Assembly: GCF_900109365.1 (NCBI RefSeq)
Contig: NZ_FNZR01000010.1
Coordinates: 1 to 64,000, forward strand
DNA length: 64,000 nucleotides
Source of the DNA: Parapedobacter koreensis
GTDB taxonomy: Bacteria > Bacteroidota > Bacteroidia > Sphingobacteriales > Sphingobacteriaceae
Direction of reading: 5' to 3'
Shown here: positions 4,751 to 60,039 of the stretch, piece by piece
How positions within the stretch are numbered: position 1 is the stretch's first letter
How the letters are laid out: every line of letters starts with the position of its first letter
Notes under the pieces: model-generated
Told to the model about the DNA's origin: nothing
Databases searched by the model: none
Seen by the model: the letters and a program-made list of their open reading frames with translations, nothing else
Translations under genes and position numbers: made by a program

Positions 4751-6403
4751 TCATGGATTTGTCGCCGCCGTATCTACAATTACGCTATCTGCACGTACGG
4801 TATCTACAGCCCCCGGACTTTCTTCCACAGCCGGTGCCGGTGGTGCGATGCCGCATTTCAAACCAGACTCGGTCATTATCCATTCCGTTTTATCGGGTAT
4901 ATTTCCATCCGTGTATCCGTAATTCGCTTCACACTGGTTGAGCGGCAAGTCCGAGATTTGGCGGCGCAGTTCCCTATCGATAATGAGTTTGGTACCCACG
5001 GGTATATTCAATTTGAGGTAAAGCTGCTGGTCGCGCATCAATTCCTGAGCAGCGATATTAAAATGGCTGTCGAATATCAAGCTATCTCCCTGTTGCTGGA
5101 AGTGGTAGTCGATTTTACCGGCGCGTTCGGCAGCCAGCTCGTAGGTTGCACCCCGCGCCATATATTCATACGTGACCGATGGGCTTTGGAGCGAATCCAC
5201 CTTCACAATACGCATACGCATGCGGCTTTGCCATTCCAAGATGTTGCGGTTGCGGATGGTTGCGCGGTGCCGGATGCGCGAGGCTCTATCCAACGAATCG
5301 TTTTGGAGCCGGATGACGGTGAGGTCGTTTCTGGATAAGTAATAAACCGGCTGCTTTTCCAGCGGCTGTTCTTCCACTACCGTGCTCTCCTCCCGGAAGT
5401 CATTGATGGTGCGCGTAGCATATACGGTAGTAAATCCCGCCGCTACCAACCAGGCCGCCAACAAGATAAATCCGGTATACTGGCCCATTGCAGGTCTGTT
5501 AAACAAGATGCGGATGATCAATGCTACCAGTGCGACGAATGGAATCACTGCCACTACCAAGGCGCTAATCAATACGGGATTCCGAGAGTCCGGCTCAATG
5601 ACATTCAGCGGAAACATGGCCATATCGGCGTCCGCCCCGAAAAACCCGAAGGAAGCCACAATACTGATGACCAGTACCACTAAACCACCGCATAGGCCGA
5701 CGATGAATAACACGCCGATTACCTTAGCCAATACGACAAATGCCTTTACAAAAAAATTGCCGGCCGAGTCCAAGCCTCTTCTAAGCCCTTCCTCGGCCCC
5801 GGTAAAATTTGTCCGGAGGCCCTCCATTTCCTCTTGGAAGCTGCGTTTGAAATTCTGCAAATTAGGCGCTTCTCCCCGCATCGCCATCCGGTCTGCACGT
5901 GTGCGGGCAATGGGCATCACTATCCACAGGATAATATAGAGCAGGAGACCGGTACCTCCGAAGACGAACAGCAGCACCAAGATAAGCCGTATCCAACGGG
6001 ACTCGATACCGAAGTAATGCCCCAAGCCGCTACACACCCCGCCAAACACTTTGTCGTCCGGATCACGCATTAATTTCCGCTGTCCACTCGTTGGCGGGAT
6101 ATCGTACGATGCTTCGTCATATGCCTCTTGTGGCTCGCCAGTCTCAAAATCGCTCACACGCCCCATCTGAGCGATGACGTCATTCACATCCTCCATGGTG
6201 ATGACTTCCTTTTTACCCTGGACAATCCGCTCATTGAACATTTCGGCAATCCGGTTTTCGATGTCGCCCACGATTTCATGGCTGTCTATCGTATGTCCAA
6301 AGTGTTTCTTCACATCTATCATATACGAGCGGAGCACTTCGTAAGCATCCTCCTCGATGTGAAATACGATGCCGTTTATATTGATGATGATAGTTCTGTT
6401 CAT
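4751..6403 (-). CDS. PspC-domain membrane protein
   Basis: A 550-residue membrane protein. Residues 1-90 form a soluble N-terminal domain (IININGIVFHIEEDAYEVL) typical of Bacteroidota PspC proteins. Residues 109-168 are the PspC domain (KVFGGVCSGLGHYFGI, then a membrane segment). Three further hydrophobic segments lie near residues 230-255, 280-305 and 312-332. The last 210 residues are soluble and probably extracytoplasmic. PspC proteins sense or buffer membrane stress in the phage-shock response. The gene lies 62 bp downstream of a PadR-family regulator on the same strand, a common pairing in this phylum, so PadR probably controls both. Confidence 0.85.
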   Translation of the reverse strand: MNRTIIININGIVFHIEEDAYEVLRSYMIDVKKHFGHTIDSHEIVGDIENRIAEMFNERIVQGKKEVITMEDVNDVIAQMGRVSDFETGEPQEAYDEASYDIPPTSGQRKLMRDPDDKVFGGVCSGLGHYFGIESRWIRLILVLLFVFGGTGLLLYIILWIVMPIARTRADRMAMRGEAPNLQNFKRSFQEEMEGLRTNFTGAEEGLRRGLDSAGNFFVKAFVVLAKVIGVLFIVGLCGGLVVLVISIVASFGFFGADADMAMFPLNVIEPDSRNPVLISALVVAVIPFVALVALIIRILFNRPAMGQYTGFILLAAWLVAAGFTTVYATRTINDFREESTVVEEQPLEKQPVYYLSRNDLTVIRLQNDSLDRASRIRHRATIRNRNILEWQSRMRMRIVKVDSLQSPSVTYEYMARGATYELAAERAGKIDYHFQQQGDSLIFDSHFNIAAQELMRDQQLYLKLNIPVGTKLIIDRELRRQISDLPLNQCEANYGYTDGNIPDKTEWIMTESGLKCGIAPPAPAVEESPGAVDTVRADSVIVDTAATNP

Positions 6404-6420
6404 TTTCTTGTGGTTTTTAT

Positions 6421-6490
6421 TATCTGATATCTAATGTCTGTTGTCTCTAGTCTCTTGTCTAACATCTACTGCCCAGTGTCTGACGTCTTC
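6421..6490. repeat. Degenerate 7-bp tandem repeat, ten units
   Basis: Between padR and the pspC-like gene the plus strand divides cleanly into ten 7-bp units, for example TATCTGA, TATCTAA, TGTCTGT, TGTCTCT, AGTCTCT, TGTCTAA. The core TCT keeps its phase in nine of the ten units (one reads CCC). The tract runs into the last eight codons of padR, so the C-terminal residues of that protein are encoded by repeat units. Confidence 0.75.
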
Positions 6491-6816
6491 CGGCCTTCCA
6501 TAGACGTCTGTACGGCGAAGACCAGCTCTTCCCAAGTCGTATCCAATTTGCCGAGTACCTCCAGCCCTGCCGGAGTAATCTGGTAATACTTACGGGGCGG
6601 GCCGGACGTTGATTCTTTCCATGCGTAACTCAATAAACCATTATTTTTAAGCCGTGTAAGCAACGGATATAAGGTGCCCTCCACCACCAGCAGGCGGGCT
6701 TTTTTAAGCTCGCCGATGATGTCTGAGGCATATATCTCGCCCCGCGAGATAATCGAGAGGATACAGTATTCAAGTATCCCTTTCCTCATTTGGGTCTGCG
6801 TGTTATCTACTATCAT
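6466..6816 (-). CDS. PadR-family transcriptional regulator
   Basis: A 116-residue winged-helix protein. Residues 10-90 carry the PadR fold: RKGILEYCILSIISRGEIYA for the first helices, VVEGTLYPLLTRLKNNGLLS for the recognition helix and GPPRKYYQITPAGLEVL for the wing. PadR proteins repress their own operon and a membrane or efflux gene and release on a small ligand or stress. A perfect inverted repeat at 6843-6861, just upstream of its promoter element, is a likely operator. The PspC-like gene lies downstream. The C-terminus is encoded by the 7-bp repeat tract. Confidence 0.88.
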   Translation of the reverse strand: MIVDNTQTQMRKGILEYCILSIISRGEIYASDIIGELKKARLLVVEGTLYPLLTRLKNNGLLSYAWKESTSGPPRKYYQITPAGLEVLGKLDTTWEELVFAVQTSMEGRKTSDTGQ

Positions 6817-48016: not shown

Positions 48017-48142
48017 AGCGTGTTGTTTTCAATGATAACATGGGAAGTTTCGTATTGTTTATTGCAAATGCGACCAAACTTTTTGCTTTTTGCTTGTTTA
48101 TTCTTATATTGTGAGCATTGAATCAAATCGGCATTCCTAATT

Positions 48143-59993: not shown

Positions 59994-60001
59994 CAAAGTT
60001 A
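59994..60001 (-). promoter_or_regulatory. Possible -7 element of the secA operon
   Basis: TAACTTTG on the minus strand matches TAnnTTTG 82 bp before secA. The -33 region is occupied by the 7-bp repeat tract at 60005-60039 and has no TTG at the right spacing. Confidence 0.35.
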
Positions 60002-60004
60002 GTT

Positions 60005-60039
60005 ATTAGATTTGAGATTTGGGATAGGAGATGTGAGAT
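60005..60039. repeat. Degenerate 7-bp tandem repeat, five units
   Basis: Five units in exact phase: ATTAGAT, TTGAGAT, TTGGGAT, AGGAGAT, GTGAGAT. Read on the other strand each unit begins ATCT or ATCC, the same TCT-based heptad style as the tract at 6421-6490. It lies between mqnD and secA, directly upstream of a possible secA promoter element. Confidence 0.65.

What the first reader, a model, noticed from the sequence alone, without database searches (positions are those of the whole stretch)
6421..6490. Ten-unit degenerate heptad repeat that runs into the padR coding end
The sequence divides into ten 7-bp units with TCT (once CCC) in fixed phase while other positions vary. The last units encode the C-terminus of PadR. 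Strict period with loose sequence suggests either selection on spacing (a structural or binding array) or an old, drifted tandem expansion.
Basis: seen in the sequence. Interest (0 to 1): 0.55.

Follow-up and report, generated by a model that had tools for sequence, protein, structure and literature searches.

The report
Decayed heptad array beside padR
The ten-unit, 7-base repeat is real and belongs to a scattered family of loosely conserved 7-base arrays which, in related and in distant bacteria, flank a small ring-protein gene (S23) as a facing pair, so a puzzling class of bacterial repeats looks like the ends and leftovers of a little-known mobile element.

Summary
The tract is real: 39 of 63 positions match at lag 7, reached by 0 of 100,000 shuffles. 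On the coding strand it is an AGACNNN array running from the padR stop towards the pspC start. The genome holds 27 such tracts; GTCTNNNx4 has 20 hits against 0 for the reversed control. In the same gene gap one congener has a longer, cleaner array; others have decayed traces or none.

Genes for PF05635 (S23, 23S-rRNA-IVP, four-helix bundle) are flanked by degenerate 7-bp (sometimes 8-bp) arrays at 70 of 71 genes examined, in Bacteroidota, cyanobacteria, one proteobacterium and one gemmatimonad; control 1 of 20. Most arm pairs face each other and share a locus-specific motif; empty sites lack gene and arrays together. In congeners the dispersed motif is that of the local S23 gene.

I read the window tract as an old, one-armed, gene-less relic of such an element. 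Against it: this genome has no S23 gene, and in G096 the S23 motif does not match the dispersed one. That S23 binds heptads is inferred.

The parts
6421..6490 (+). Degenerate heptad tract, TCTNNNN on + (AGANNNN on the coding strand); best part 6421-6460
6466..6816 (-). padR (PF03551); its last codons and stop lie inside the tract
4751..6403 (-). PspC-domain gene (PF04024, LiaI-LiaF-TM, Toast-rack) downstream of the tract
6404..6419 (-). Leader TAAAAACCACAAGAAA before the pspC start, kept in congeners with and without the array, so it marks the edge of the array
   Evidence: read from the printed gaps; alignment with G007
59999..60039 (+). Second degenerate heptad tract of the window, another motif (GAGATNT)

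Best explanation
The tract is an old, decaying, one-armed member of a dispersed family of degenerate AGACNNN heptad arrays. Arrays of this type are the flanks of small mobile elements built as: heptad array, S23/IVP four-helix-bundle gene (PF05635), heptad array in inverted orientation. Gene-less copies (facing pairs or single arrays) stand in gene gaps, often flush with stop or start codons, vary in unit number and drift. Shown by computation: the association of S23 genes with arrays, the mostly inverted pairing, the locus-specific motif, empty sites, and in five S23-bearing congeners that the motif at the S23 gene is the one found repeated in that genome. Inferred: that S23, a pentameric ring in a solved relative, recognises the repeat units (as RNA or single-stranded DNA), that this underlies spreading, and that an S23 gene with the AGAC motif once existed in this lineage.
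For: Tract and family. Orthologous gap with longer, decayed and absent arrays. S23 loci with arrays: genus 8 of 8 on both sides; 20 of 20 in 12 other genera, 13 of them on both sides, against 1 of 20 control stretches; plasmids 21 of 21 examined (of 31 records), 18 with period 7 and 3 with period 8 only; 21 of 22 further genes. Own arms share 6.0 8-mers in inverted sense, arms swapped between loci 0.76. 71 of 79 arms have more G than C reading inward. Motif similarity rises with S23 similarity, Mantel rho 0.21, 0 of 2000 permutations as high. Motifs from S23 flanks are repeated in the predicted genomes of the genus. G007 has an S23 gene flanked by AGACAAT/GTCTATT arrays and 111 GTCT hits. Empty sites.
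Against: The own genome has no PF05635 match, yet has 27 tracts; G004-G006, also without one, have no GTCT hit. G096 has 57 GTCT hits but its only PF05635 gene carries AGTATTN arrays, so AGAC arrays there lack a cognate gene; GTCTGAN arrays of several g21 genomes also have no clear match among the S23 loci I took. G003 has its S23 motif only at the S23 locus itself. The window tract has one arm only. Some S23 loci have arms that match better in direct than in inverted sense (L287, L289, L295, L334). One S23 gene, L353 in G098, has no array at the threshold used. Protein-motif correlation may be mere common descent. No binding or transposition has been measured.
Confidence: 0.66

Rival explanations
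1. Plain replication slippage: a chance 7-bp duplication in a gene gap expanded, drifted and decayed, with no link to S23 (the polymerase-slippage idea reported for bacterial heptamers).
For: Heptamer excess is known in many bacteria and slippage was proposed for it (passages of PMC4679880 and PMC4692102). The own genome has no S23 gene. Alternating unit variants suggest local slippage.
Against: Does not predict arrays at 70 of 71 S23 genes against 1 of 20 controls, inverted arms sharing a motif, period 8 at some S23 loci, or motif matching in congeners.
Confidence: 0.2
2. A protein-binding or regulatory array for padR or the pspC gene, selected for spacing.
For: Strict phase with part of each unit constant; tract flush with the gene edges.
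Against: Array absent in four congeners with the same two genes; the same family occurs at 27 places next to unrelated genes.
Confidence: 0.06
3. Selection for nucleic-acid structure: facing arrays form intergenic hairpins, or G-rich arrays form quadruplexes, that protect or separate transcripts.
For: Gaps of G007 with facing arrays fold at -47.6, -33.7 and -45.8 kcal/mol (L199, L204, L210, no shuffle control was run). GGGAATC oligonucleotides form quadruplexes (PMC4692102, section 16 read).
Against: AGACNNN, AGTATTG and AAATCNN units have no G runs; the window tract has a single arm.
Confidence: 0.06

Closest known systems
IVS elements in 23S rRNA genes with S23p ORF (Coxiella IVS, PMC4990558; passages read)
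   Same: S23/PF05635 ORF between terminal inverted repeats; that paper reports two or three tandem heptameric repeats before the S23p ORF, varying between strains
   Different: The loci here lie between protein genes, have long degenerate arrays on both sides and gene-less copies; the window tract has no ORF
GGGAATC / GGGGA(C/T)T heptads of Xanthomonas and Nostoc (PMC4692102; sections 10, 11, 16 read)
   Different: No G runs here; that paper does not mention S23 in the parts I read
TAACTGA direct repeats (PMC4679880; abstract, section 12 and passages read) and Calothrix heptanucleotides (named in PMC4692102; the name STRR is recalled)
   Same: Intergenic heptads, several units; ACTGATA/TAACTGA arrays flank the S23 gene of L295
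   Different: Other motif than AGACNNN; no gene was linked to them in the parts I read
REPIN-RAYT systems (search listing only)
   Same: Works like it: one gene flanked by short repeats plus gene-less copies in gene gaps
   Different: S23 is not a Y1 transposase (recalled); heptad arrays instead of short palindromes

Membership tests
Degenerate bacterial heptad arrays (GGGAATC / TAACTGA / Calothrix heptanucleotide kind) | Period 7 with several units | tested here: met
Degenerate bacterial heptad arrays (GGGAATC / TAACTGA / Calothrix heptanucleotide kind) | Dispersed in the genome, mostly intergenic | tested here: met
   27 tracts, 4 of them overlapping an ORF call; 464-kb scan
Degenerate bacterial heptad arrays (GGGAATC / TAACTGA / Calothrix heptanucleotide kind) | Fixed orientation at gene edges and facing pairs | tested here: met
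   20 of 22 and 19 of 26 tracts; 13 of 13 facing pairs in G096 and G126. For arrays of other motifs a purine or G/C rule was not found
Degenerate bacterial heptad arrays (GGGAATC / TAACTGA / Calothrix heptanucleotide kind) | G-quadruplex potential (GGGAATC subtype only) | tested here: not met
   no runs of three G in units of the tract (sequence)
S23/IVP element | PF05635 gene between the arrays | tested here: not met
   no such ORF at the site; no PF05635 match in the genome, 0 of 12 candidates
S23/IVP element | Inverted pair of arrays | tested here: not met
   one arm only in this gap
S23/IVP element | Same motif at an S23 gene of the lineage | tested here: inconclusive
   met in congener G007 (L281 AGACAAT/GTCTATT); no S23 gene in the own genome; not met in G096
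23S rRNA IVS | Insertion in a 23S rRNA gene | tested here: not met
   the tract lies between padR and the pspC gene
REPIN-RAYT | RAYT Y1 transposase gene in the genome | not tested
   no search made; works-like comparison only

The most novel reading that the evidence does not exclude
The long-unexplained degenerate heptad repeats of bacteria (Calothrix and Nostoc heptanucleotides, Xanthomonas GGGAATC, TAACTGA of Beggiatoa and Bacteroidetes, the AGACNNN arrays here) are one thing: recognition arrays, and gene-less offspring, of mobile S23 elements. The pentameric S23 ring reads successive units, which fixes the period (7, sometimes 8) while leaving part of each unit free, and each S23 lineage has its own unit.
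Probability: 0.42. Interest if true: 0.88.

Novelty: new variant of a known kind. Interest (0 to 1): 0.74.

Why it matters
Heptamer excess in bacterial genomes has been described repeatedly without a cause, and S23 proteins, relatives of the Avd protein of diversity-generating retroelements, have no known function. Tying the two together gives S23 a candidate substrate and the repeats a candidate source, and makes both testable with one binding assay. It also warns that such tracts at gene ends need not be regulatory sites.

Tried and rejected
Chance: rejected. Period 7 in all gene gaps: absent, lag 7 = 0.2733 against 0.2713 at lags 6 and 8 in 181 gaps (that script stopped with an error after printing this table, and its phylum half did not run), so the feature is discrete tracts. 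The control equals the pattern itself and tells nothing. Supply of stop or start codons in three frames was considered for the orientation rule and dropped, because the AAAGCNN...GCTTTNN pair of L063 lacks such codons in most units. Purine or G/C polarity for arrays in general: not supported, 22 de novo arrays, p 0.41 and 1.0. Prediction that the S23 gene of G096 carries AGACANN arrays: failed. GTCTGAN arrays of g21 genomes: no clear match among the S23 loci taken. Target-site duplication: one site suggests about 8 bp, the others do not agree; left open. Array length own (median 31 bp, n 23) against G007 (52 bp, n 34) is not used as evidence: the G007 tracts were picked with a stricter pattern from a capped list. 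In one search four gene neighbourhoods with arrays are shared with G007, but on recounting against only three are the same gap (padR-pspC, upstream of the 364-aa gene of L165, upstream of the 280-aa gene of L195); in the fourth (L191/L214) the arrays stand in adjacent gaps. My notebook still says four. A regex for S23 proteins missed 14 of 49 loci; an HMM search then found 49 of 49. Flanks of the Xanthomonas S23 gene were not fetched. No structure prediction was run.

Full report
Observation. The ten units are there as described, TCT in nine and CCC in one. 39 of 63 positions match at lag 7; 0 of 100,000 composition shuffles and 1 of 100,000 Markov sequences reach that. padR ends at 6466 inside the tract and the PspC-domain gene starts at 6403. 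On the coding strand the tract reads AGACNNN away from the padR stop.

Family in the genome. TCTNNNNx4 has 51 hits, which I reduced to 27 tracts, 4 of them overlapping an ORF call. GTCTNNNx4 has 20 hits here, 111 in congener G007, 2, 3 and 1 in G001-G003 and none in G004, G005, G006 and G008; the reversed control has 0 in all nine. 38 of 201 genomes of the family have a hit; in genus g21 and a few other genomes the control also has hits, since GTCTG-type arrays match both. A scan of 464 kb of this genome finds 11 intergenic lag-7 segments of score 12 or more (3 more in coding sequence) and at most 5 intergenic ones at any other lag from 4 to 28; G007 has 4 in 400 kb, one of them 317 bp long, G006 has 1 in 400 kb. 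Motifs other than AGAC occur too (GAGAT, GCTT and others).

History of this site. In the padR-pspC gap the own genome has 62 bp with heptads; G007 84 bp with a cleaner array; G004 and G006 decayed AGAC traces; G001 28 bp, unclear; G002, G003, G005 and G008 13-19 bp without array. Own and G007 gaps align with 81% mean column identity including the flanks. Heptads of other motifs stand in the same gap in three of 80 more distant loci, L055, L063 and L080. Own and G007 share arrays in three orthologous gaps among those fetched. So the tract is probably old and decaying.

Arrangement. Between co-directional genes of own and G007, 20 of 22 TCT-sense tracts are nearer the start codon and 19 of 26 AGA-sense tracts nearer the stop, Fisher p 8e-6; in the own genome alone p is 0.06. 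Not all are independent: six of the own TCT-sense tracts stand before paralogous genes beginning MIKN, and three G007 arrays in L203 are copies of one larger repeat. Read from the gene edge into the gap, both kinds are AGAC. Facing pairs are AGAC...GTCT in 13 of 13 adjacent opposite-strand pairs closer than 700 bp in the listings of G096 (6) and G126 (7). This is the arrangement reported for Xanthomonas GGGAATC, here without G runs. A general purine or G/C rule for arrays of all motifs was not found.

The S23 link. Arrays of G007 flank a 119-aa PF05635 protein. All 8 PF05635 loci found in the genus have lag-7 arrays on both sides. I then chose 20 loci in 12 other genera from the listing: 20 of 20 have a lag-7 array within 600 bp, 13 of them on both sides, against 1 of 20 stretches about 30 kb away on the same contigs (the controls come from 16 of the 20 genomes, four of them used twice, and three had no ORF at the middle). 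On plasmids 21 of 21 examined loci have an array, 18 with period 7 and 3 with period 8 only: Nostoc, Calothrix, Anabaena, Stanieria, Pseudanabaena, Geminocystis, Aulosira, Trichormus, Scytonema, Azospirillum and Riemerella with 7; Gemmatirosa, Leptolyngbya and Picosynechococcus with 8 (several are close relatives and two are copies). A last set, S23 loci of genomes with GTCT arrays, gave 23 HMM hits for 22 genes (one split), 21 genes with arrays, one of them with period 8 as the best lag; L353 of G098 has none. Together 70 of 71 genes; thresholds were score 10 or 11 and 220, 450 or 600 bp.

The arms belong together. The left arm and the reverse-complemented right arm of a locus share 6.0 8-mers on average, in direct sense 2.95, and arms swapped between loci 0.76; 34 of 40 loci share at least one in inverted sense, 18 in direct sense. 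71 of 79 arms have more G than C reading inward, 6 fewer. Motif similarity follows S23 similarity: mean cosine 0.02-0.04 below 50% identity, 0.12 at 50-60%, 0.33 at 60-80%, 0.79 above 80%; rho 0.21, 0 of 2000 permutations (47 loci). Common descent may explain part of this.

Dispersed motif and local S23 motif. Three patterns taken from S23 flanks were searched in all nine genomes: ATTRACCx4, G007 64 and G003 4, others 0; TCACYNNx4, G002 18 and G001 8, others 0; AAATCNNx4, G008 35, and G000, G002, G004 and G007 1 each, others 0. Without hits at the S23 locus itself, counted from the listings: G007 51, G003 0, G002 15, G001 6, G008 29. The own genome (AGAC arrays, no S23) and G096 (AGAC arrays, S23 with AGTATTN arrays) do not fit. 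The 27-contig assembly may miss a repeat-flanked gene, but that was not tested.

Mobility. Two genes that stand six bases apart in the own genome (L121) have an S23 gene with both arrays between them in G007, and the next junction has a second one. Trichormus and Scytonema plasmids carry the element where a 97.9%-identical Microchaete stretch has none. A Nostoc plasmid has it between two ribonucleotide reductase genes, a Calothrix plasmid not. In one Nostoc plasmid operon two different S23 genes sit at different junctions in different plasmids, and a neighbouring gap of several of them holds gene-less facing arrays of the GGAGTCAG type. Gene and arrays come and go together, so the arrays are not merely the target.

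How it may work. Known elsewhere: Xanthomonas S23 is a homopentamer of four-helix bundles (passage of PMC4990558; its structure 2gsc is found by sequence), and PF05635 resembles Avd (passages of PMC10053308; weak bAvd and Avd hits below their cut-offs). Inferred: the ring reads successive repeat units, as the TRAP ring reads its triplets (recalled comparison), which would keep spacing strict and sequence loose; slippage changes unit number; the copying step is unknown. Once the gene is lost, arrays decay.

Print status. My ten searches of the open-access library listed no paper, among the rows shown, that joins S23 genes with dispersed heptads; the Coxiella IVS paper alone reports heptamers before its S23 ORF. 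Subscription journals and preprints are not covered, so this is no proof of novelty.

Noticed in passing
window 59999-60039: A second degenerate heptad tract (GAGATTT/GAGATGT type) between two genes on the minus strand; GAGATNT is also the motif at an S23 gene of G007 (L286).
   Followed up: partly
window 48079-48105: Short CTTTTTG tract of period 7 in a divergent gene gap.
   Followed up: no
L007, L182, L184, L187, L188, L189 (own genome), L218 (G007): Several TCT-sense arrays end just before genes starting MIKNYxKTA (by recall MacB/FtsX-type permeases; not tested), perhaps copied along with these paralogues.
   Followed up: no
L333, L334, L343: On cyanobacterial plasmids S23 genes with arrays sit inside CRISPR-Cas operons, between cas6 and cas4 or after cas10.
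   Followed up: no
L338, L339, L343, L352: S23 loci whose arrays have period 8 as the only or best lag, which could show that the protein sets the period.
   Followed up: partly
L203 (G007:C90:13400-16600): A larger tandem repeat of about 275 bp that contains AGAC heptads.
   Followed up: no
80 padR loci L030-L109: Lag-17 segments are in excess in gene gaps (11 at score >=12), perhaps a conserved operator at padR; not located.
   Followed up: no
L262, L264, L266, L271, L274, L277 (G126): Large gene gaps bounded by AGAC...GTCT arrays are filled with other repeat families.
   Followed up: no
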